Below are positions 26,710 to 52,629 of a stretch of DNA of 64,000 nt, piece by piece; position 1 is the stretch's first letter, and the number at the start of each line of letters is the position of its first letter. The stretch covers positions 372,001-436,000 of the forward strand of contig NZ_CP060298.1 of the NCBI RefSeq assembly GCF_014303395.1, read 5' to 3'. The notes under the pieces were generated by a model. That model saw nothing but the letters and a program-made list of their open reading frames with translations. It searched no databases and was not told the origin of the DNA. The stretch comes from Nakamurella sp. PAMC28650. Its GTDB lineage: Bacteria > Actinomycetota > Actinomycetes > Mycobacteriales > Nakamurellaceae. The position numbers were made by a program, and so were the translations under genes.

Positions 26710-28065
26710 CTACCCCGCGCCGGCGGCGCGCCGTTCGGTGCGACCGGCGATCAGACACGTGAACTGACCATGTAGTTCCTCGGCGACCAGGGCCAGGTCG
26801 GGGCAGTGCTGGGGGTCGGCGATCATCGTGACGGCCAAGGTTCCGGCGTAGGACAGCGCGGCAAAGGAGACCGTGACGTTCCCGGTGATCGAGGTGACGG
26901 GGATGATGTCGGTGACGGTGGCCCCGAGGAACGTCATCGGTGATGGCGGACCATGCAGGTTCGTGACGAACGTGGTGACCAGACGCTGGCGGTCCACGAA
27001 CCAGCTGAACATGCCGAGCCGGGCCAGCGCTCGGAAAGCCGGCCCCAGCAGGGTTGCCGACGCGGCCTGCCCGTGAGCTTGCCGGCGGGACCGGGTGGTG
27101 TGGGCGATGGCGGCCAGGCGCTCGGTCGGGTCGCCGTGGGTTGACGCCTCGACCAGCATTGCTCCGACGTGGTTTCCGAGGGCGGTTGGGGTGTTTTCCC
27201 CCCGACCGGACACCGGCACGGACAGGACCAAGGTTTCGGCCGATTCGCCGCGGTGTCTCAGGACGGCGGTCAATGCGCCGGTGACGGCGGTGAGCAGGAC
27301 ATCGTTGACGGTCGCGTCGGCGGCGTGGGCGGTGGAGACCAGCGCCGCGAGGTCGGCGCGGACCACGGCGAGTTGCCGGTGCGATCCGGTGGGTTGGTTG
27401 AGGGTGCACCGGGTCGGGTGGCCCACATGACCTCCGCCGAGTTCGGTGACGGCGTCCCGCACCAGTCGGAGGCCGGCGGGCCACCGCCGGAGGGCGCGGA
27501 ATCGCGAGGCGGTCGCGTCGACGAGCAGGTCCCGGGTCATGGGTGCCGGTGTCGGGAACGCCCACTCGGGGCTGGGCCGGGCGCCGTCGATCAGCAGGGC
27601 CAGGGCGGCGAGCCCGCCGATCCCGTCGGCCAGGACGTGGTGGATGACCAGGACCAGTGCGCTGCGACCGGCCCCGAGGCCGTTGACGAGGGTGATCGAC
27701 CAGAGCGGGCGCTTGCGGGACAGGGGATGCCTGGCTGCCTTTGCAGCGACCTTCAGCAGGGCGATTTCGTCGCCCGGGGCCGGGCACGTCCGATCGATGA
27801 TGTGGCGGTCGATGGTGAAGTCGGCGTCATCGACCCAGATGGGTCGGCCGCACCCGACGGGCGCGCGTTGCAGCCGCTGGCGTGGCCGGGGAACGGCGGT
27901 GATGCGGCCGGCCAGGGCCGACCGTAGGGCAGCGGTGTCGACGGGTCGATCCAGCACCAGGATCGCGGCGACCTGCATGGGCGCCACCGCCGATTCGGTG
28001 GCCAGCGCCATCAGGTCGTTGCCGGTGGTGCGCTGGATCGCAGGGCGCCGGTGTTCGGGTGTCAT
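26710..28065 (-). CDS. WS/DGAT-family wax ester synthase/diacylglycerol acyltransferase
   Basis: Start at ATG 28065 (MTPEHRRPAIQRTTGNDLMAL), overlapping the stop of the upstream gene by 4 nt. The much longer frame to 29037 is the upstream gene read out of frame. The 451-residue enzyme has the active-site motif HHVLADG (about 143-149), PLWSITLVNGL before it, NDVLLTAVTGAL about 260 and the C-terminal VTNLHGPPSPMTFLGA. The family esterifies fatty acyl-CoA to alcohols or diacylglycerol for storage lipid. The partner gene upstream encodes a DUF6544-like membrane protein. Confidence 0.88.
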   Translation of the reverse strand: MTPEHRRPAIQRTTGNDLMALATESAVAPMQVAAILVLDRPVDTAALRSALAGRITAVPRPRQRLQRAPVGCGRPIWVDDADFTIDRHIIDRTCPAPGDEIALLKVAAKAARHPLSRKRPLWSITLVNGLGAGRSALVLVIHHVLADGIGGLAALALLIDGARPSPEWAFPTPAPMTRDLLVDATASRFRALRRWPAGLRLVRDAVTELGGGHVGHPTRCTLNQPTGSHRQLAVVRADLAALVSTAHAADATVNDVLLTAVTGALTAVLRHRGESAETLVLSVPVSGRGENTPTALGNHVGAMLVEASTHGDPTERLAAIAHTTRSRRQAHGQAASATLLGPAFRALARLGMFSWFVDRQRLVTTFVTNLHGPPSPMTFLGATVTDIIPVTSITGNVTVSFAALSYAGTLAVTMIADPQHCPDLALVAEELHGQFTCLIAGRTERRAAGAG

Positions 28066-34500: not shown

Positions 34501-35151
34501 CTAACCGCCGGCTTCGAGCTCGGTGCTCCACTCTGCGAAGAACGTTCGCAGCTCGGCGATGTTCACCGCGCCGAGGGCGAGATCGACATCGGTGTAACGA
34601 TTCAGGAAGCCAATCATCTCGACGAAGACGCCGGTCTCGAAACCCGAGTCGACCTCGCGGGCCAACGCGAGCAGTTCGACCTTGCTGAACCGATGACTGA
34701 GGGCGAGAACATCGACGAAGTCACGCGCTGCAGCACGGTCGAACAGCGCGATCACTTTGCGGCCGGCGAGCTCGGCGGGCGCGAACGTCGGACCGACAGT
34801 GCTTGACCCGGCCGGGCGAACAGGGGCGGAATCCATCGCCAGGTCAATAATCAAGTCCTCGGGCCCCTCGACGAGCAGCCGGCAGAAAGTTTCGCCGTCT
34901 CGGATCACCTCGACTCGCCAGCCGTGCTCACCTGCTATCGCGATGAACTGGTCCCGGGCCAGCCTGACCTCGTTGGCACCGGGCCGCGTAAAGAAGTCCA
35001 GGTCCTGGGTGGGCCGCTCCGTCAGGCCCTGCGCCAACAACGCCCCTCCACCGGCAAGCAGGAACCCGTCACTGGCCGGCAGACCGAAGAAGAGCCGAGT
35101 GACCGTCCGCTGAAAGTCAGTCAGCCAGCTGCCCGTGGCACCCACCATCAC
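34501..35151 (-). CDS. AbiEii/MenT-like nucleotidyltransferase toxin
   Basis: The 216-residue protein carries the nucleotidyltransferase signature: LLAGGGALLAQGL (about 31-43) then TQDLDFFTRPG with the DxD (about 48-58). A later acidic/lysine segment, AGRKVIALFDRAAARDFVDVLAL (about 129-151), matches the AbiEii-type transferase motif. Such toxins modify tRNA or other RNAs with nucleotides and are neutralised by the partner. The start GTG/ATG overlaps the stop of the upstream HTH gene by 3-4 nt, the expected coupling of a type IV-like antitoxin-toxin pair. Its size is shorter than full AbiEii (about 300 residues). Confidence 0.8.
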   Translation of the reverse strand: MMVGATGSWLTDFQRTVTRLFFGLPASDGFLLAGGGALLAQGLTERPTQDLDFFTRPGANEVRLARDQFIAIAGEHGWRVEVIRDGETFCRLLVEGPEDLIIDLAMDSAPVRPAGSSTVGPTFAPAELAGRKVIALFDRAAARDFVDVLALSHRFSKVELLALAREVDSGFETGVFVEMIGFLNRYTDVDLALGAVNIAELRTFFAEWSTELEAGG

Positions 35152-35681
35152 GCAACGCCCGGCATGTCAACGGAGCCGCGGTAACGACCGATCAAGGGAG
35201 ACCACGCCACGCGGACCGCCCTGGGCAGCACCAGCTCATCCCACAGGTCGATCAGCAGTACACCGTCCAGATAGCGCAGGACATCGGAATCGCTACCCTC
35301 ACGCAACACCAGCTCGTACACACGAGCCCTATCGCCCCGATCGGACAGCCGGAACACTCGTTCCGGCTGAGACCAGTTCAACGTCAACGGCAACTCCACC
35401 GCCGCCAAGGCCTGCTCCGCTGGCAGCCGCGGAAGCCAAGTCGGCACGCGAACGGGCCGCCCTCTGTCCATTTTCACTTCTGAGAACTCGATCTGCGGCC
35501 GGGCGTCCAGTTCGTAACCGGCGGCGGCCACCAGCCGGTCAACGGTGTCCAGCGATGGTGACTTCCGACCATGTTCGTACGCGGAGACGGCCGTGCGTGA
35601 GGTGCCTGCTCTTCGCGCGAGATCCTCTTGGCTCAGCCCCGCCGATCGACGGACCCACGCCAGCAGCTCGGTACTTCGCAT
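35148..35681 (-). CDS. Xre-type HTH antitoxin partner of AbiEii-like toxin
   Basis: Start at ATG 35681 (MRSTELLAWVRRSAGLSQED). The 177-residue protein has an N-terminal Xre helix-turn-helix (LSQEDLARRAGTSRTAVSAYEHGRKSPSLDT, about 16-46) and a C-terminal domain (VPTWLPRLPAEQALAAVELP, LNWSQPERVF, YELVLREGSD) ending with LIDLWDELVLPRAVRVAW, seen in HTH-plus-domain antitoxins next to nucleotidyltransferase toxins. It likely represses its own promoter. It is the first gene of the two-gene operon; the start lies 33 bp from the ADH fragment's end region. Confidence 0.8.
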   Translation of the reverse strand: MRSTELLAWVRRSAGLSQEDLARRAGTSRTAVSAYEHGRKSPSLDTVDRLVAAAGYELDARPQIEFSEVKMDRGRPVRVPTWLPRLPAEQALAAVELPLTLNWSQPERVFRLSDRGDRARVYELVLREGSDSDVLRYLDGVLLIDLWDELVLPRAVRVAWSPLIGRYRGSVDMPGVA

Positions 35682-35750
35682 GACCCGCCCCGCTCCGTCA
35701 CTGTATCCGATCAGATACCTCACTATCGCACAGAAGAAGTCGATAGAGCG

Positions 35751-36132: not shown

Positions 36133-36315
36133 CTACGGGTGCAGGAGGAGCTCGAGCGTGGTGGCGGCTTGGTGGTCGGTCATCGGCAGCACGTGGCTGT
36201 AGGTCCGCAGGGTTGTCCTGGCGTCGCGGTGACCGAGCCGGTATTGAGCAGCCAGGATGTCGCCGCGTTCGACCAGGAACGTGGCCACCGAATGCCGCAG
36301 CCGGTGCAACGTCAC
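36133..36315 (-). pseudogene. Tyrosine recombinase C-terminal fragment (minus strand)
   Basis: The 60-residue frame carries LHRLRHSVATFLVERGDILA and QYRLGHRDARTTLRTYSHVL, with the HxxR box, GH and the catalytic tyrosine of phage-type integrases, and its natural stop. The N-terminal half is gone. Confidence 0.75.
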
Positions 36316-36349
36316 GTCCGGATGGCCCGCGCCGTGACATAGCGCGGAG

Positions 36350-36687
36350 AACCAAACACCTGGCCGGCGGACCCATGCTCGGCAACTCCGTCAGCGCATC
36401 CATCTCCAACGTCATGGACCGCGCCGGGATCCCCGGCACCCCCCACGCCCTGCGCCACTGGTTCGGCCCCGCACTCCGAGAGGCCGGCGTCGACTCCCTG
36501 GTCATCAAAGAACTCATGGGACACGAACCCCCCCGCCACCACCGGCATCTACGTCGACGTACCCCTCAAACAGCGATCGGCCGCGGTCTCGTTGTTACCC
36601 GTCATCTCGTCGGTACGACCGGCGCTCAACACCGACGACGACACGGCGTTCGAACAGTTCGCCCTGTTCGACTGGGCCTCTCGGTAG
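36350..36687 (+). pseudogene. Tyrosine recombinase C-terminal fragment (plus strand), frameshifted
   Basis: The plus frame encodes GNSVSASISNVMDRAGIPGT and PHALRHWFGPALREAGVDSL then VIKELMGHE, again an integrase C-terminus with HxxR and GHE. At a run of seven C (about 36526-36532) the frame shifts by one; the next frame continues ATTGIYVDVPLKQRSAAVSL with the catalytic tyrosine and ends at TAG 36685-36687. It differs in sequence from the minus-strand integrase fragment. Confidence 0.75.
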
Positions 36688-45691: not shown

Positions 45692-47089
45692 TCAGGTCGG
45701 CGCCGGCAGCTGGGTCAGCCGGTCCAGGGCGGTGGTGAACAGGTGCCGGTGGGTTGCGTGACCGGACAGGTGCAACCAGACCCGGCGGCTCCGCCGGGCG
45801 ATGGTCGCCGCCACGGAGAACAGCTGCAACCGCAGCCGTTTCGGTTCCCAACGGCGGGCCCCGGTGCCGGTCAACGCCAGCATCTGCAGCCACGCGGTCA
45901 GCTCCGTAGCGAGCTGGACGACGGCGACCCAGATCTGATTTTGCGCGAACGCAGTCAAGGGCAGGTTCCGCAGGCCGGTGTCTTTCGCGTTGCGGATCCG
46001 GTCTTCGCAGCGGGCCCGGTGGCGGTGCCGCAACTCCAGGTCCGCGAGTTGCCCGCCGGTGGTGTTGGTGACGAACGCGGTCAGCCGGTTGCCGCCTGAG
46101 TCGGTGAACCGCAGCTGCGCCCCGGGGTGCGGACGTTCGGCCCGGACGATCACCCGCATCCCTGCCGGCCACGTTGACAGGTCCAGCAGGCCGGTGAGTT
46201 CGGTGACCCACGCCCCGTCGCGGACCTTCCCATCGCCGTCGTAGGCCGGGGTCCACCCTTGGTCGGGGATCAGGTTGATCTTGTCGACGATGTCCTGCGT
46301 CAGCCCGAACCCCACCGAATACGACAGGCCCTGCCCGGCCAGCCACTTCAGGTATTCGTGGGTGCCGCCGCCGCTGTCGGCGCGGACCAGCACCCTGCGC
46401 CCGATGCGGCCGCCACGGCGGTTGAAGGGCAACTGCCGCAACGCATCCTTGGTGACCGCGATGTGGTCGGCGGCGGTGTTGGATCCGGCCCTTCCGGGGC
46501 GCAGCATCATCGACAGTGGCTCACCGGTGCCGTCGGGGCCGTGATCCACCCACGACCCGAGCGGGTGGAACCCGAAGCCCTTCTTGTAGGTCGGCGCCGC
46601 CAGTTCCTTCTCCGAATGGGAGGTGATCAACGTGGCGTCCAGGTCGATGATCAACGGCCGGTCCCGGTCGATTCCGAAGTCGGGGGCGTCCTTCCCGGCC
46701 ATCTTCCACACCCGCTGTCGGACTGCTGCTCTGGCCTGGTTGATCGCCGCCAAAGCGGCCTGCGGGGTCGCGGCCAACGCGTCGATCAGCCGGGACACTG
46801 TTGGGTCGGAGGCGACCCGCCCGAACACCGCCGGCTCAGACCGCACCACCGAGATGTCGGCCAGGCAGTCCCCGCCGATGGCGACGCTGACCGCCAGGTC
46901 CAGCAGGATCTTCCCCGGATCCAGCACCGCCCACTGCTTGCGCCACGGCGCCAACGCCGCAGACAAAGCCCGGTCCAACCCGACCTTCCCGGCGGTGGTG
47001 ACCAGCAGCACAGCACCGGCGTGGGACACCACCCGCTTCGCGGTCGTGTCCACTGTCAACGGCGGGTAGAAACCGGTAGGGTTCGGCAT
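45692..47089 (-). CDS. IS1380-family transposase
   Basis: The 465-residue DDE transposase shows DLDATLITSHSEKE (first catalytic Asp about 149), VRADSGGGTHEYLKWL (second Asp about 236) and HRARCEDRIRNAKDTGLRNLPL (Glu about 336, the Y-xx-R-xx-xE-like region of IS4/IS1380). Length and motifs are those of full-length IS1380 proteins. The exact element ends are not certain; left end about 45530 and right end about 47185 are suggested by a shared TTTC..GTGAG segment. Confidence 0.9.
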   Translation of the reverse strand: MPNPTGFYPPLTVDTTAKRVVSHAGAVLLVTTAGKVGLDRALSAALAPWRKQWAVLDPGKILLDLAVSVAIGGDCLADISVVRSEPAVFGRVASDPTVSRLIDALAATPQAALAAINQARAAVRQRVWKMAGKDAPDFGIDRDRPLIIDLDATLITSHSEKELAAPTYKKGFGFHPLGSWVDHGPDGTGEPLSMMLRPGRAGSNTAADHIAVTKDALRQLPFNRRGGRIGRRVLVRADSGGGTHEYLKWLAGQGLSYSVGFGLTQDIVDKINLIPDQGWTPAYDGDGKVRDGAWVTELTGLLDLSTWPAGMRVIVRAERPHPGAQLRFTDSGGNRLTAFVTNTTGGQLADLELRHRHRARCEDRIRNAKDTGLRNLPLTAFAQNQIWVAVVQLATELTAWLQMLALTGTGARRWEPKRLRLQLFSVAATIARRSRRVWLHLSGHATHRHLFTTALDRLTQLPAPT

Positions 47090-47258
47090 CAGAAAGGTGC
47101 TCCTGTTTGCTGACGATGTGGACCTTAGAGACCCTCATTATCGCAGGTCGGGGCACCTTTCCCTCACTTTGAAACACCAAATCCAGTATCTGCGTGAAAG
47201 CGCAAGGCTAGGGCGTGTCCCGCGGATCTTGGAGGTCGGTTCCGACAGACTCTGATTT

Positions 47259-47735
47259 GTGCAGAATCGTCATGATTTGTCGGATGAGCAGTGGGCCCGG
47301 TTGGAGCCTTTGCTACCGGATCGGACCCCGATTCGGGGTGGTCGGTGGGTCGATCACCGCAGGGTCGTCGACGGGGTGCTGTGGCGGACCAGGTCCGGTT
47401 CGGCGTGGCGGGATCTCCCGGAGTGTTACGGCAATTGGAAGACGGTGTACAACCGGCATCGTCGCTGGTCAGGGGACGGTACCTGGCAGCGGGTGCTGTC
47501 GATGCTGCGGGCGGACTGCGATCACGGCGATGTCGGTGAGTGGGCGTTGGGGGTGGATGCGACGGTGATCCGGGCGCATCACCACGCGGCAGGTGCCCGG
47601 CACGAACCGCCGAAGGACATCCCCGCCGCCGTCCTTGCCAGCGTCGTGTTGGAGGCTCCGATCAAGGCCCTCAAAGACACAGGGGGCACTATCGAACTAC
47701 AAGAATTCTGCGGATCGGCCGCCGCCGGTCGTTGA
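47259..47735 (+). CDS. IS5-group transposase, frame A (N-terminal part)
   Basis: The 158-residue product has the DUF4096-type start LSDEQWARLEPLLPDR (about 6-21), VVDGVLWRTRSGSAWRDLPE and WALGVDATVIRAHHHAAGA (first catalytic Asp). It lacks the C-terminal catalytic residues, which are in the next frame; the two halves fuse through a +1 shift near 47676-47690 (GACACAGGGGG region), the programmed frameshift strategy of IS427. Confidence 0.88.
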   Translation: MQNRHDLSDEQWARLEPLLPDRTPIRGGRWVDHRRVVDGVLWRTRSGSAWRDLPECYGNWKTVYNRHRRWSGDGTWQRVLSMLRADCDHGDVGEWALGVDATVIRAHHHAAGARHEPPKDIPAAVLASVVLEAPIKALKDTGGTIELQEFCGSAAAGR

Positions 47736-48255
47736 TCGGGAGGGTTTGGGGCGTAGCCGCGGCGGGGTGACGACGAAGATCCACATGGCGGCTGATTCGA
47801 AGTGTCGGCCGGTGGGGCGGGTCATCTCGGCTGGTCAGCGGCATGACGCGTTGGCGTTCACCGCGGTGCTGGCCGATATTCGGATCGTGCGCGGCCGTGA
47901 TGGGCGGCCTAGGACCCGACCGGATCGGGTGTTGGCGGACAAGGCGTATTCCAGCGGCAGAATCCGTAAGTCGTTGCGGCGTAGGGGTATCAAGGCGACC
48001 ATCCCGGAGCCGGTGAACCAGATCAACGGTCGCCTGTCCAAGGGTTCCCGTGGTGGTCGGCCACCCAAATTCGACAAGGAAATCTACAAGGACCGCAACA
48101 CCGTGGAGCGGACGTTCAACCGGCTACGCGGCTACCGCGCGGTCGCCACCCGGTATGACAAACGGGAGTTCGTCTACCGAGGCACCGTCGACGTCGCCAG
48201 CATCGGAATCTGGCTCAGGCATCTAACGGAGAACGATCCACGGGACACGCCCTAG
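47660..48255 (+). CDS. IS5-group transposase, frame B (C-terminal part)
   Basis: Encodes GRSRGGVTTKIHMAADSKCR, DRVLADKAYSSGRIRKSLR (second Asp) and FDKEIYKDRNTVERTFNRLR (catalytic Glu), then RYDKREFVYRGTVDVASI. This is the catalytic half of the transposase, in frame +1 relative to frame A and without its own good start. The stop TAG lies in the terminal CTAG. Translation presumably depends on frameshifting from frame A. Confidence 0.85.
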
Positions 48256-48257
48256 TA

Positions 48258-49299
48258 GCGGACCTGCCGATGCTGCGGCGTCACCACCACCGCCGACTGG
48301 ACCGACAACACCGACCTCAACACCGACGTCCTGGCCACGCCGGGATCCCCGGTGCGGATCGGACCGGCCGCGTTGGCGATGTGCGCCTACCTGACCTGCG
48401 CCCACTACCTGCCCATCGGGCGAGCCAACACCCTGATGGAAACGTTGACCGGGCTGCACCTGGCCACCGGATTCACCGCCCGCGCCCGCCGACGCGCCGC
48501 ACACAAACTGATCGGCACGTTCGTTCCGCACCTGCAACAACTGCTCACGACCGCGCCGGTACTGCACGCGGATGAGACCACCGGCCGCGCCGACAACGCA
48601 CTGGCCTACGTGCATGTCGCCTGCACCGAATACCTGACGTTGCTGCACGTCGCCGGACGATCCAGCGCCGACATCGACCAGGGCGGAGTCCTGGCCACGT
48701 TCACCGGCGTGCTGGTCCGCGACGGCTACGCCGGATACGAGCACCTCCCGGCCCTGCACGCCTGGTGCGGAGCGCACCTGCTCCGAGATCTGCGCGCCAT
48801 CTCCGACGCCGACCCCCTGGGGCAACTGTGGGCCACCGCCATGGCCGACACCCTCACCGCCGCCCACCACGCCGCAGCAAAAGCACGACAGGCTGGCCTT
48901 GACCGCCTGGATGACACCACCCTGGCCACGCTGCTCAACCACTACCTCGGCGCGCTGGCCAAAGGCCGCACCGACAACCTCAGCGACCACAGCGACCTCG
49001 CCCGGCGGGCCCGGACCCTGATCCGCCGGTTCCACTGCTACCAAGACATGATCCTGCGGTTCACCACAGACTTGACGATCCCGTGGACCAACAACCAAGC
49101 CGAACGGGACCTACGACCAGTGAAAATCCAGCAACGCACCTCCGGCGGATGCTGGCGCACCCTGGCCGGCCTCGTCGAATTCGCCACCGTCCACTCCTAC
49201 CTGGCCACCGCGGGAAAATGGGGCAAAAACAAACTCGACGCCCTCACCGAACTGTTCACCACCGGCCCCTGGCTACCCCCAACCCTGGCACCCAGCTGA
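48258..49299 (+). pseudogene. IS66-family TnpC transposase, 5' truncated by IS5 insertion
   Basis: The frame opens at the IS5 boundary with a zinc-ribbon-like CRCCGVTTTADW, then PVRIGPAALAMCAYLTCAHY, LHADETTGRADNALAYVHVA (catalytic Asp), VRDGYAGYEHLPALHAWCGA and WTNNQAERDLRPVKIQQRTS (catalytic Glu region), and ends normally at TGA 49297-49299. About 150-180 N-terminal residues including the leucine-zipper/HTH part are missing. No TnpA/TnpB companions remain in the window. Confidence 0.88.
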
Positions 49300-49354: not shown

Positions 49355-50512
49355 TCAATCCGGAAAATTTCGGGCATTGGCATGAGTTGAAAGTCGGCGT
49401 CCGCGGGAGTTTGCGGCAGCCACGGCGGCAAATCGCACGGCCTCGCCTCGCGCTGGTGAATCTGACGCGGCCGCGGAGGTGAGATCTCGCCAGTACTCGT
49501 CAACGAGGCCCGGCCCTCGGGCTCCAGCAGTCGATGAGCTCCGCCGTGCGAAGGTTGCTGCAGGACGTTCGTTCCGTAGGTCTTCGAGCCAGGCCACGAC
49601 AGCACCTACACCGGCAACATCCCAACAACGATCTCGGACGGCGGCGGCCACTTGATCGGCGCTCCAACCAGCGGTCGCGAGGGCTAGGCATCTGCGCTCA
49701 AGCGCACGTCCGATCGCCTGACGAGCGAGCCCCGCCGGCAGAGAGGCGCGGACTGCGGCGACCAACCCCTCGACATCCGGGTCGACACCTTCAGCGATGC
49801 CGGTCTTGACGAGATTCAAATCCGAAAGGTCTGGAGCTGCTGAGGAGATGCTCGACCGGCCCGAAGCGGAAGCTGTGGCCGGGGGTGGTGGGTTCCAGTT
49901 CTTGGTTGAAGTACTTGGTTTGTCTGAAGCTGGCTTCACCCCTGAACGGCGGCAAACTTCATGCCGGGGCGACGCCAGATCGCACGTCTCGAAGCACGCG
50001 CTCGCAGACATGCAAGATTTGCATGTCTCTTCACCTGCGGGTACGTCGGCCGAATCTACCGATGTCGAGCCCTGGGACTTCGGGCCTGCAGATCCTGCAG
50101 GTCTGTTGACCTGCACGTTTGCGCGTTGCCCTCGACGGGACATGATGGCCTCTCGGTCCTCAGCGACGACCGGCGGCAGGTGGGCCTGGGTGGCGGCGGC
50201 GTGGCTGCCGTCCATCACCAGGTCCCATACCGTTGGCGCGTACGCGCGGCTCTTCCCGCGACCGCGCACCGCGGCCTCCGCGATGCGCTGATCGCCGCGT
50301 CGAATGACGCCCTTCGCGTGGAGAGAAGACAGAGTGGAGCCGATCGTCCTGGTCGAGACGCCGACGATCTTGGCGATCCGTTCCCACGATGGGAACGCGT
50401 TCGCGCCGGAGGTGTCGGCATGCTCGGCAAGGACCATGAGGACGCACTTCTCGGTGGGGTTCGTCTTGACCGGCGCTTCGTACATCGCCCACAAGATGGC
50501 AGGAAGGCTCAT
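49355..50512 (-). CDS. HTH protein of mobile-element replication-initiator type
   Basis: Start at ATG 50512 (MSLPAILWAMYEAPVKTNPT); 385 residues. The N-terminal domain (EKCVLMVLAEHADTSGANAFPSWERIAKIVGVSTRTIGSTLSSL, about 19-62) is the helix-turn-helix fold found at the start of plasmid and integrative-element replication or regulatory proteins. The middle is low-complexity and polar; the C-terminus (LPAGLARQAIGRALERRCLA, AAAVRDRCWDVAGVGAVVAW) is helical. Its role in replication is inference. It forms a tight minus-strand cluster with the next two genes but is separated by 55 bp. Confidence 0.6.
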   Translation of the reverse strand: MSLPAILWAMYEAPVKTNPTEKCVLMVLAEHADTSGANAFPSWERIAKIVGVSTRTIGSTLSSLHAKGVIRRGDQRIAEAAVRGRGKSRAYAPTVWDLVMDGSHAAATQAHLPPVVAEDREAIMSRRGQRANVQVNRPAGSAGPKSQGSTSVDSADVPAGEETCKSCMSASACFETCDLASPRHEVCRRSGVKPASDKPSTSTKNWNPPPPATASASGRSSISSAAPDLSDLNLVKTGIAEGVDPDVEGLVAAVRASLPAGLARQAIGRALERRCLALATAGWSADQVAAAVRDRCWDVAGVGAVVAWLEDLRNERPAATFARRSSSTAGARGPGLVDEYWRDLTSAAASDSPARGEAVRFAAVAAANSRGRRLSTHANARNFPD

Positions 50513-50567
50513 GACGGTCGCGCCCACTCAGGCCAATCAGTAGTTCCGTGTGGAGAGAGACCGAGCA

Positions 50568-51089
50568 TTACGTCTTCTCCATCGCATCGGCGAGCCGGCA
50601 CAGTCGCCCGGCCACATCCGGGAGGGTCGAGGCCAGTCCGAGCAGGTCCTCGGCGATGCACCGAAGCTCCTCGGCAGCTGACTCATTGCCATCGGGCGGT
50701 GCCCCGTCGACGAGATCCTCTGCTGAGGCAACGATTTCGGGGATGGCGGGGATTCCGTAGCGAATGATCGTGTCCAGCCGCTCGACGAGTCGGGTGACGT
50801 TCTCGCGGACCGGCTCGGCGTCACGGTCGAGCTCAGCCCTCGGTCGGGGCATTCGTCCGTTGTGGCTGGGTTGCACCGGCCGTCGGTACTCGACGTCGTC
50901 CGGGGTGAGATTGTCAGCCGCGCCACCCGTGCGCGGACTTGATCCCAGACCAGCCGCGAACAGCTCCCAGGGGCAGTCGCTCCCCCCGGGATGCGATTCG
51001 CCGCATATCTCGCAGTCGATGAAGCCGTCGTCCACAATGCGACGTCCGACGGTCGCACCGTGGGGTTGGTTGCGCGCCGTCGGTTTCAT
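50568..51089 (-). CDS. Hypothetical protein with CxxC...C motif (mobile-element cluster)
   Basis: Start at ATG 51089, overlapping the previous gene's stop (ATGA). The 173-residue protein has a short zinc-knuckle-like region FIDCEICGESHPGGSDCPWE (about 23-42) and an acidic helical C-terminus (AEELRCIAEDLLGLASTLPD). No family is recognised. Translational coupling to its neighbours indicates a shared function. Confidence 0.6.
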   Translation of the reverse strand: MKPTARNQPHGATVGRRIVDDGFIDCEICGESHPGGSDCPWELFAAGLGSSPRTGGAADNLTPDDVEYRRPVQPSHNGRMPRPRAELDRDAEPVRENVTRLVERLDTIIRYGIPAIPEIVASAEDLVDGAPPDGNESAAEELRCIAEDLLGLASTLPDVAGRLCRLADAMEKT

Positions 51090-51883
51090 GCTGCGATCCG
51101 GTTGGCCCGGGCAGTCCGTAGGCTCCTGCCGGCGACGATTCCCTGCACGAGGCGGAGCGTCTCCCCGTGCTGCCGAAGGCCAGCCGCGCCAACGCGGGCG
51201 AAGAGGTCGGCCGCTCCGACCTGACGATTGCCGGCGGCACATCCGGGTCCGCTGCCGGCGACCAGGAGCGCCAGGCCTGACCATGCTGCGGGAGGCACTC
51301 CGGTGTCGTGCCCGGCGAGCGGCGACTGCCGACGGCGTCCGTTCAGCGCCACCACGGCAGCGGAGGCGACTACAGCGTCCAGAGCGGCAACTGGGTACGA
51401 CCAGCCGGCCCGCACCAGCATTACAGCGAGCACCCGCATCCAGACCGGCAGTGGAGCCTCCAGATTTGAATCAGGTGCGGGTAGGGACTCGAGCGCCTCG
51501 GTCGTGGTCAGGCTGGTGCTGCGGTGCGTCCTTGCAATCCGTACCAGGCCACGGGTCTTTGGCGTGCCGACCCCGGTCTGGGCTGCGGCGGCTTCCCCTG
51601 CGTACGAACGCTGGGCCACTCGACGTACCACAGACGGTGCCACCTCGATCTGCCCCTTGACGAGCAGCCGGTTGACCGCTTCCCAGACATCGGCCAGGCC
51701 TTCGTCGGAGAACCAGCCGGCCGAGTAAGTCCATCTCGAGGCCTCACCGCGGCAGACGCGGCGTAGGTGCGCCACGGCCAGGCGGCCTTCGTGGCTGTCC
51801 CAGCCCTTGTCACCGACTTCGCGCAACAGACCGACTAGGTCGACCCCGGCGGATGCTGGACCCACCGCCACCGCGGTGGTCAC
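51086..51883 (-). CDS. Hypothetical protein of mobile-element cluster
   Basis: The 265-residue protein starts MTTAVAVGPASAGVDLVGLL and contains SHEGRLAVAHLRRVCRGEAS and an ADVWEAVNRLLVKGQIEVAP helix in its N-terminal half, then two hydrophobic Ala/Val segments in the middle (VWMRVLAVMLVRAGWSYPVA, LDAVVASAAVVALNG). I recognise no family. It overlaps by 4 nt both the HTH gene upstream (ATGA at 51880-51883) and the next gene downstream. Confidence 0.6.
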   Translation of the reverse strand: MTTAVAVGPASAGVDLVGLLREVGDKGWDSHEGRLAVAHLRRVCRGEASRWTYSAGWFSDEGLADVWEAVNRLLVKGQIEVAPSVVRRVAQRSYAGEAAAAQTGVGTPKTRGLVRIARTHRSTSLTTTEALESLPAPDSNLEAPLPVWMRVLAVMLVRAGWSYPVAALDAVVASAAVVALNGRRRQSPLAGHDTGVPPAAWSGLALLVAGSGPGCAAGNRQVGAADLFARVGAAGLRQHGETLRLVQGIVAGRSLRTARANRIAA

Positions 51884-52134
51884 GACGCCTCCTCCCCCAC
51901 GTTCACGCTCACATCGGCCAGTCGACCGGTGAAGAAGTCGAGCTCCACGTCGAGAACCATTGCGATGGAGGAGAGTTCGGCCAGGGTGAACCCCGGGTCC
52001 CCTCGGAGTCGCCGGCTGATCCAGCCCTGGGATCGGTGAAGAGATGCACCGAGCACTGCCTGGCTGATCGCACGGGCGGCAAGAGCCTGACGGACGCGGC
52101 TGCCCACCCGACGATCAAGTTCTGAAGTCGTCAT
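51880..52134 (-). CDS. Xre-like HTH regulator, leaderless
   Basis: The 84-residue protein has a Xre fold (RVRQALAARAISQAVLGASLHRSQGWISRRLRGDPGFTLAELSSIAMVL, about 13-61). It starts MTTSELDRR. The ATG follows 6 nt after a TAGACA -10 box (52141-52146), with a TTGACT -35 17 bp further upstream, so the transcript would begin at or next to the start codon. It faces the plus-strand HTH gene at 52269, a divergent two-repressor arrangement like a lysogeny switch. Same cluster with the following minus-strand genes. Confidence 0.78.
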   Translation of the reverse strand: MTTSELDRRVGSRVRQALAARAISQAVLGASLHRSQGWISRRLRGDPGFTLAELSSIAMVLDVELDFFTGRLADVSVNVGEEAS

Positions 52135-52140
52135 TGCGTC

Positions 52141-52169
52141 TGTCTACAGCGACGACGAACCGCAGTCAA
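52141..52169 (-). promoter_or_regulatory. Sigma-70-type promoter for minus-strand HTH gene
   Basis: Reading leftward: TTGACT (52169-52164), 17-bp spacer, TAGACA (52146-52141), with the ATG six bases later. This is a near-consensus promoter with no room for a ribosome binding site, so leaderless expression is expected. Confidence 0.65.
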
Positions 52170-52232
52170 GCATTTTCAATCGCTCAGCGCATAGTTGTCG
52201 CCAATGGGCTGACTACTGACGCTCGAAGGGTA

Positions 52233-52261
52233 GTGACAGACTGAGCAAGCGGTCGTAGAGT
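52233..52261 (+). promoter_or_regulatory. Sigma-70-type promoter for plus-strand HTH gene
   Basis: GTGACA (52233-52238), 17-bp spacer, TAGAGT (52256-52261), ATG at 52269 seven bases later. It mirrors the divergent promoter at 52141-52169 in spacing and layout. Confidence 0.6.
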
Positions 52262-52268
52262 CACGAGC

Positions 52269-52598
52269 ATGACGGTCCCACTCACAGACAGAGTCTCTCT
52301 CCGAGAGGCGGTCGCCGCGGAGCTGCGTTCGGAATTGGCCCGCAACCGGATCAGCGCATCGAAGGTCGCGTTTGCGATTGGCAAGGACCAGCCTTGGATC
52401 AGCCGGCGGTTGACCGGTCAGGTGGCGTTCGACCTGGACGATCTGGATGCCATCACCCAGGTGATGGGGATCAGTCCCAGCGAGTTGATGGCTGCCGCCC
52501 ACGAGACGGCGAAGAAGCCGCGGCGTCGGATCCCTGATCGGGAGGTGGATCTGGAGTGCGCCTGGAGGGATTCGAACCCCCAACCTTCTGATCCGTAG
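52269..52598 (+). CDS. Cro/C1-type HTH regulator reading into tRNA-Arg
   Basis: The 109-residue protein starts MTVPLTDRVSLREAVAAELR and has a C-terminal-heavy Xre HTH (SKVAFAIGKDQPWISRRLTGQVAFDLDDLDAITQVMGIS, about 31-69). The last 14 codons and the stop lie inside the antisense of tRNA-Arg (52557-52629). The final residues (ECAWRDSNPQPSDP) are a translation of the tRNA, the signature of a gene brought up to a tRNA by integration. It is divergent from the other HTH gene, an immunity/Cro-like pair. Confidence 0.75.
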   Translation: MTVPLTDRVSLREAVAAELRSELARNRISASKVAFAIGKDQPWISRRLTGQVAFDLDDLDAITQVMGISPSELMAAAHETAKKPRRRIPDREVDLECAWRDSNPQPSDP

Positions 52599-52629
52599 TC
52601 AGATGCTCTATCCGTTGAGCTACAGGCGC
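52557..52629 (-). tRNA. tRNA-Arg (anticodon ACG)
   Basis: The minus strand folds into a complete cloverleaf: acceptor GCGCCTG paired with CAGGCGC, D-arm GCTCAACGGATAGAGC, anticodon loop CTACGGA with ACG, and the T-arm GGGGGTTCGAATCCCTCC. 73 nt without encoded CCA. A plus-strand HTH gene overlaps its 3' half. Confidence 0.95.

What the first reader, a model, noticed from the sequence alone, without database searches (positions are those of the whole stretch)
49355..52629. Compact module with divergent leaderless HTH genes at a tRNA-Arg
Three minus-strand genes overlap by 4 nt each (52134-51089) and start with an Xre regulator; a second HTH gene runs divergently and ends inside the antisense of tRNA-Arg. 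Both HTH genes have mirrored promoters (TTGACT/GTGACA, 17-bp spacer, TAGACA/TAGAGT) and ATG only 6-7 nt after the -10. Two of the three coupled genes have no recognised family. The layout suggests the control region of an integrative element or phage satellite, possibly undescribed.
Basis: partly seen in the sequence, partly recalled or inferred. Interest (0 to 1): 0.65.

Follow-up and report, generated by a model that had tools for sequence, protein, structure and literature searches.

The report
Mobile-element switch built into a tRNA
This is the leftover control end of a mobile element in a Nakamurella chromosome; in a sister species that keeps both ends of such an element, the repressor gene contains the attachment site, so insertion into a tRNA gene cuts the repressor short, a switch known from phages and here seen on what looks like a conjugative element.

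Summary
In detail: XRE gene, two 4-nt-coupled genes of no known family, an HTH_36 replication-initiator-like gene, and a divergent HTH gene (P0004) ending in the antisense of tRNA-Arg(ACG). The block is the tRNA-side end of an integrative element, and P0004 looks like a repressor of the 'integration-dependent immunity' kind. It matches (44%) the immunity repressor of Gordonia phage PhrostedPhlake, which carries the same tRNA-Arg core in the same frame but runs to 145 aa; P0004 stops at 109 aa on tRNA bases. Nakamurella lactea has the same module at the same tRNA and keeps the other attachment site (40-bp identical core) beside an integrase 48% identical to the phage's. Joined as a circle, its repressor is 142 aa; integration turns TGG into TGA and leaves 108 (phage BPs: 136 to 103). 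With a TrwC relaxase, VirD4-like and SCO6880 proteins and ParB, that element reads as an ICE, though split over two contigs. The window's genome keeps only the module, beside insertion sequences. Function is inferred; the N. lactea long repressor lacks the usual -AA tag, and a related element in another genome shows no truncation. No held paper found links this switch to ICEs.

The parts
52556..52629 (-). tRNA-Arg (ACG), the attachment gene (attR side)
   Evidence: ARAGORN
52558..52590 (+). att core (tRNA 3' end, antisense), ending at CTTCTG; its left limit is not known in this genome
   Evidence: 33-nt pattern, only copy found in the own genome at up to 3 mismatches; right boundary inferred from the G001 remnant, the phage PhrostedPhlake ORF and N. 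lactea attL/attR
52269..52598 (+). P0004: repressor (rep), 109-aa integrated form; last residues and stop encoded by tRNA antisense
Evidence: 44% to PhrostedPhlake 'immunity repressor' over residues 13-107; phrog_4583 and phrog_2328; 46% to the N. lactea ortholog over 81 aa.
52135..52268 (.). Divergent control region: -35/-10 for P0004 at 52233-52238 / 52256-52261 (+), for P0003 at 52169-52164 / 52146-52141 (-)
   Evidence: sequence, consensus scan for the P0004 site, layout kept in N. lactea
51880..52134 (-). P0003: Cro-like XRE protein, first gene of the leftward operon
   Evidence: 51% to the N. lactea ortholog over 70 aa, 37% to PhrostedPhlake gp45 over 68 aa; phrog_4583
51086..51883 (-). 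P0002: unnamed family; in the genomes searched, strong relatives only in this genus
   Evidence: no match in phage or plasmid records or by pattern scan of viral contigs
50568..51089 (-). P0001: CxxCGExH...CPW motif protein; relatives in G002 and the third gene in N. lactea have a further N-terminal, HTH-like part
   Evidence: the HTH match in N. lactea is below the Pfam cut-off
49355..50512 (-). P0005: HTH_36, replication-initiation-like protein (phrog_1032)
   Evidence: N. lactea relative (31% identical) is followed by a weakly ParA-like gene
45692..49299 (.). Insertion sequences beside the module: IS1380 transposase 45692-47089 (-), IS4/5-type 47259-48255 (+), IS66 transposase part 48352-49299 (+)

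Best explanation
The block is the attR-side end of an integrative, probably conjugative, element inserted in tRNA-Arg(ACG), most of which has been lost. P0004 is its repressor and P0003 its divergent Cro-like partner. The attachment core lies inside the repressor gene. In the excised circle the repressor ORF runs on past the core (142 aa in N. lactea) and is followed by the integrase. After integration the bases next to the core come from the tRNA and supply a stop, giving a repressor of about 106-109 aa. By analogy with phage BPs, the short form is the active one and holds down the Cro-like promoter, which drives P0003-P0002-P0001-P0005 (and a ParA-like gene in N. lactea), i.e. plasmid-like replication and partition of the excised element. 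Integration would thus switch off the mobile state, and the integrase would lose the repressor promoter. Shown from sequence: anatomy, homology, att sites and predicted truncation in N. lactea. Inferred: activity of the two forms, the operon's function, and that P0004 is still active in this genome.
For: P0004 and the phage repressor share frame and core; the phage ORF continues after CTTCTG with TTCGCGAGG, the tRNA with ATCCGTAG. Reciprocal comparison pairs P0004 with the phage repressor (9e-21) and P0003 with the phage divergent HTH protein (8e-14). N. lactea: same rep/cro/P0002/third gene/P0005-like order with 4-nt overlaps, then a ParA-like gene. Its second core copy lies on contig C4: 40 identical bases, then G instead of A, making TGG/TGA and a 142/108-aa repressor. 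Integrase beside it, 48% identical over 272 aa to the PhrostedPhlake integrase. TrwC relaxase and SSB; VirD4-like, SCO6880, ParB above their cut-offs, VirB4-like weak. The published BPs switch works this way, down to the base next to the core making a stop (PMC4557955; PMC9262239). tRNA-Arg is an insertion hot spot: 6 of 17 genomes of the genus hold two or more core copies (in G008 both copies lie at contig ends).
Against: In the window's genome no second core was found, no relative of the N. lactea integrase at E 1e-10 and none of its coupling protein (which had no positive control), so the excised form here cannot be read. The N. lactea long repressor ends ...FRRRAS and its integrase ...ACDQ, not the -LAA type tag of the described systems. 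The N. lactea element lies on two contigs, not joined. In G006 (tRNA-Phe, 57-bp repeats) the joined form gives 118 aa against 121 aa integrated: integration does not truncate the repressor there; that element has no PF00589 match. In G002 two of three P0002 copies lie beside att copies, but no P0004 relative was found. Similarity alone does not tell rep from cro: of five phage records opened, the P0004 match lay in the annotated immunity repressor in two (PhrostedPhlake, Gudmit) and in its divergent partner in three (P3MA, prophiT50-1, Guacamole).
Confidence: 0.8

Rival explanations
1. The window's module is the end of a decayed prophage with integration-dependent immunity, not of an ICE.
For: rep, cro and int relatives are known from phages; P0005 resembles phage replication initiators; the element body is lost here; a repressor relative at tRNA-Lys in G044 has phage-like neighbours by eye.
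Against: P0002 has no match in 50,697 phage records and none confirmed in viral contigs; the P0003-P0002-third gene-P0005 order is shared with the N. lactea element, whose contigs carry relaxase, coupling protein and ParB.
Confidence: 0.14
2. P0004 only reads into the tRNA by chance; it is an ordinary regulator beside a tRNA and not a repressor with attP inside.
For: The tRNA-derived residues are in different frames in the two Nakamurella species, so the peptide itself is not conserved; in G006 the ORF hardly changes on integration.
Against: The phage repressor carries the same core in the same frame; the N. lactea attL/attR pair marks the core as the attachment site; similar overlaps occur at tRNA-Phe and tRNA-Lys.
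Confidence: 0.05
3. An addition rather than an alternative: the remnant is kept as a stand-alone immunity locus, P0004 in its short form repressing incoming related elements.
For: P0004, P0003, P0002, P0001 and P0005 are all open although the rest of the element is gone.
Against: The related copy in G001 is frameshifted, so the locus is not generally kept; no expression data.
Confidence: 0.25

Closest known systems
Mycobacteriophage BPs integration-dependent immunity (gp33/gp34, int gp32)
   Same: Divergent rep/cro pair, attP inside rep, tRNA-Arg target, short integrated form (103 vs 136 aa; in N. lactea 108 vs 142), stop made by the chromosomal base next to the core (PMC4557955; PMC9262239)
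   Different: On an element with conjugation genes; in N. lactea the codon changed is Trp, not Cys; no -LAA type tag on the N. lactea long repressor or integrase
Gordonia phage PhrostedPhlake gp43-gp45 (MK801724)
   Same: rep, cro and int all homologous; same core, same core boundary, same rep frame as P0004
   Different: Phage (a minor tail protein gene is in the stretch read); rep ends ...DPAAA and int ends ...SAA; no P0002 match in phage records
T4SS-type ICEs of Actinobacteria (PMC3218068, passages seen)
   Same: Integrase, VirD4-like coupling protein, relaxase and a weak VirB4-like match in N. lactea
   Different: In the passages seen, attP inside the repressor gene is not described for them

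Membership tests
Integration-dependent immunity system (BPs type) | Divergent HTH repressor and Cro-like gene with promoters between | tested here: met
   genes and homology; promoters as consensus matches only
Integration-dependent immunity system (BPs type) | attP inside the repressor ORF; attB at the 3' end of a tRNA | tested here: met
   N. lactea attL/attR and the joined attP; in the window genome only the attR side was found
Integration-dependent immunity system (BPs type) | Integration shortens the repressor | tested here: met
   142 to 108 aa in N. lactea; in the window only the short form can be read; not met in the related G006 element (118 vs 121 aa)
Integration-dependent immunity system (BPs type) | Tyrosine integrase just downstream of the repressor in the excised form | tested here: met
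   N. lactea: open frame C4:26525-27508 (-), first start codon at 27424, next to attL; no relative found in the window genome
Integration-dependent immunity system (BPs type) | ssrA-like C-terminal tag on the long repressor | tested here: not met
   N. lactea long form ends ...FRRRAS; described tags are -LAA or similar. So it works like this system but is called a variant, not a full member
Integration-dependent immunity system (BPs type) | Only the short repressor is active | not testable with these tools
   needs reporter assays
T4SS-type ICE | Integrase, relaxase, VirD4 coupling protein and VirB4 between att repeats (N. lactea) | tested here: inconclusive
   all found on the two contigs bearing attL and attR, VirB4 only weakly (E 2.2e-6), but the two contigs are not joined in the assembly
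T4SS-type ICE | The same set in the window's genome | tested here: not met
   no relative of the N. lactea integrase or coupling protein (no positive control); relaxase and VirB4 were not searched there; remnant only

The most novel reading that the evidence does not exclude
A family of actinobacterial ICEs has an integration-dependent switch: the attachment site lies inside the ICE repressor gene, and recombination with a tRNA gene makes the stop codon that turns the repressor into its short form, so integration itself decides between the quiet chromosomal state and the replicating, transferable state. The long form may be inactivated by something other than an ssrA-like tag.
Probability: 0.65. 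Interest if true: 0.75.

Novelty: new variant of a known kind. Interest (0 to 1): 0.6.

Why it matters
Integration-dependent immunity has been described as a phage strategy. Finding the rep-attP-int cassette, with a 48% identical integrase, on an element with conjugation and partition genes would show that this switch moves between phages and conjugative elements. It also gives a directly testable account of how an actinobacterial ICE ties its quiet or mobile state to integration, and explains why an HTH gene runs into a tRNA gene at a remnant such as this one.

Tried and rejected
A second att site in the window's genome: none found with a 46-nt and a 32-nt pattern, a short-word search of the window or the shorter core pattern. 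The 32-nt pattern ran past the core end and so missed the N. lactea and G001 left sites; one search corrected this.

Integrase fragments near window 36169-36533 were considered as the lost integrase: their match to the N. lactea integrase is not significant (E 0.13 and 0.15), so they are not assigned to this element.

P0002 structure: two-sequence AlphaFold model with mean pLDDT 37, not used, no fold search run. P0002 profile against solved structures: best E 0.18, isocitrate lyase, not credible. The repressor profile finds only general HTH regulators (best E 2.9e-4). P0002 in 394 genomes of the class: the own genome and one weak match, G356, not examined. In one search the weak matches in G003 and G062 and a fragment in G002 were not counted as relatives; the G062 one lies antisense to an ORF that looks like a transposase by eye. 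No plasmid record matched P0002. The first pattern scan of the named genome collection with P0002 alone found nothing; the second, with an alignment, found N. lactea only.

Operator search: some imperfect inverted repeats in each intergenic region, none convincingly shared, no statistics. Toxin-antitoxin pair: considered and set aside because both HTH proteins match phage repressor families best; the defence-system library was not searched.
Full report
What is there. The window lies in a single-contig 5.63-Mb genome, placed in the genus Nakamurella because its same-genus relative G016 is N. lactea DSM 19367. The coordinates of the finding are right. P0003 (XRE), P0002 and P0001 are coupled by 4-nt overlaps; P0005 follows 55 nt later; P0004 runs the other way and ends inside the antisense of tRNA-Arg(ACG). 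P0003 and P0004 are both closest to a PHROG family of repressors (phrog_4583). P0005 carries HTH_36 and resembles replication initiators. P0002 and P0001 match no curated family.

The key observation. tblastn of P0004 against 50,697 phage records gave 60 records with a match, 5 of them covering at least 80% of it. The best is gp44, 'immunity repressor', of Gordonia phage PhrostedPhlake, next to a tyrosine integrase (gp43) and a divergent HTH gene (gp45). The phage ORF contains the tRNA-Arg antisense sequence TGCGCCCGTAGGGATTCGAACCCCAAACCTTCTG in the same frame as P0004, then continues with TTCGCGAGG to 145 aa and ends ...DPAAA. P0004 has the corresponding core up to CTTCTG, then tRNA bases ATCCGTAG, i.e. 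Asp-Pro-stop. Part of the 44% identity (residues 13-107) comes from the tRNA-encoded tail; the HTH part is also similar. Of five phage records I opened, the match lay in the annotated immunity repressor in two (PhrostedPhlake, Gudmit) and in its divergent partner in three (P3MA, prophiT50-1, Guacamole). So similarity alone does not tell rep from cro; the att position and the pairwise scores do (P0004 to gp44 9e-21; P0003 to gp45 8e-14, to gp44 0.002). In the published BPs system attP lies in the repressor gene and integration shortens gp33 from 136 to 103 residues (PMC4557955; about the first 10,000 characters read, and passages). The base next to the core turns a Cys codon into a stop (PMC9262239; passages). 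The original paper (Broussard et al. 2013) is not held and is cited through these.

The test in N. lactea. The same order is found at the same tRNA-Arg: a P0004 ortholog (46% over 81 aa), a P0003 ortholog (51% over 70 aa), a P0002 relative (37%), a third gene with an HTH-like part and a CxxCGESH motif, a P0005 relative (31%), then a weakly ParA-like gene; the genes from cro to the P0005 relative overlap by 4 nt each. Searching 17 Nakamurella genomes for the core, up to 3 mismatches, gave two or more copies in 6 of 17 (G001, G002, G004, G005, G008, G016; both G008 copies lie at contig ends) and one in the window genome. The second N. lactea copy lies on contig C4, next to an integrase. The two copies share 40 identical bases and then differ: A (tRNA) at attR, G at attL. 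Joining the element sides in a script gives a circular repressor of 142 aa (140 from the inner start) and an integrated one of 108 (106) aa: TGG becomes TGA. The integrase is 48% identical over 272 aa to that of PhrostedPhlake. The Cro-like proteins are 37% (P0003) and 44% (N. lactea) identical to gp45.

What kind of element. On the N. lactea contig sides facing the element I found a TrwC relaxase and an SSB protein (C4), and a VirD4/TraG-like coupling protein, an SCO6880-family protein, ParB, a weak VirB4-like match and a weak ParA-like match (C8). Eight N. lactea proteins from outside the module, given to PHROGs, matched no phage family; the five module proteins did. I scanned only some of the ORFs, and my gene calls there are rough. 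The element is split over two contigs (70.7 kb in sum), so its unity is inferred from the paired att sites.

Distribution. P0002 matched in 6 of 150 related genomes including the own one; the strong matches are in 4 (own; G002 with three copies and a fragment; G006; G016). P0001 matched in 2 of 150 (own and G002), though the third genes of N. lactea and G006 share phrog_29861 with two G002 relatives scanned; P0001 itself did not match that family. A profile search of 394 genomes of the class found the own genome and one weak match. P0004 matched in 12 of 150, own included. In G001 a frameshifted P0004 copy, 88% identical over 277 nt, ends exactly at CTTCTG and is followed by other sequence; this core copy is 15.6 kb from the tRNA, as if a later element had entered the same tRNA. 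In G044 a repressor relative runs into tRNA-Lys and stops at a TGA there; its neighbours look phage-like by eye. In G006 a repressor relative runs into tRNA-Phe beside P0002, and the element is bounded by 57-bp repeats 15.9 kb apart, but there the joined repressor is 118 aa against 121 aa integrated: truncation is not general, or that end has been rearranged.

The window's own copy. No second core was found, no relative of the N. lactea integrase (E 1e-10), and none of its coupling protein (without a positive control). IS1380, IS4/5-type and IS66 transposase genes lie beside the module. It is a remnant whose five ORFs are still open.

Mechanism. Likely: in the integrated state the short repressor, made from its own promoter, shuts the Cro-like promoter and the replication/partition operon; in the excised state the longer repressor is inactive or unstable, the operon is on, and rep and int are co-transcribed. 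Shown: sequence anatomy. Inferred: activity. Against a plain copy of the phage scheme: the N. lactea long repressor and integrase lack an -LAA type tag.

Literature. 19 held papers contain 'integration-dependent immunity' (listing seen, all phage or prophage papers by title, one of them also on plasmids); none also contains 'integrative and conjugative', and one contains 'conjugative', in a paper on mycobacterial prophages and separate plasmids (PMC8092301; passages). Two broader searches and one for Nakamurella showed nothing on point in their listings. For actinobacterial ICEs I saw passages of PMC3218068, for Gordonia phages passages of PMC5559632. Papers outside the library were not searched.

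Changes on re-reading: confidence in the best explanation was lowered from 0.82 to 0.80, and the prophage rival raised from 0.12 to 0.14, because phage matches also fall in Cro-like partners and the ParA-like match is weak.

Noticed in passing
window 36133-36539: Tyrosine-recombinase fragments on both strands in a decayed stretch, near an XRE gene and a nucleotidyltransferase-like gene (34501-35723) that looks like an AbiEii-type pair by eye, not scanned.
   Followed up: partly
G002:C1:442762-527034 (L012, L013, L058): Three tRNA-Arg core copies in a row with P0002/P0001 genes just inside the first two and an integrase beside the tRNA, but no P0004 relative; the core of the copy read there runs on to GTAGTC.
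   Followed up: partly
N. lactea G016 C4:15188-24900 and C8:1035-9384: Many defence-like genes: an OLD-TOPRIM ATPase plus UvrD helicase pair (Gabija-like, name recalled), Mrr-type endonuclease, methylase, Abi_C, and type I restriction-like genes by eye.
   Followed up: partly
L059 13309-13955 (G003) and L067 14725-15371 (G010): A toxin-antitoxin-like gene pair (by eye, not scanned) lies near the same tRNA-Arg in two other genomes of the genus.
   Followed up: no
L015 8341-8397 and L143 4723-4779 (G006): A 15.9-kb element at tRNA-Phe with 57-bp repeats and the rep/P0002 module but no PF00589 integrase match.
   Followed up: partly
window 50568-51089: P0001 lacks the N-terminal HTH-like part that its relatives in G002 and the third gene of N. 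lactea have.
   Followed up: partly
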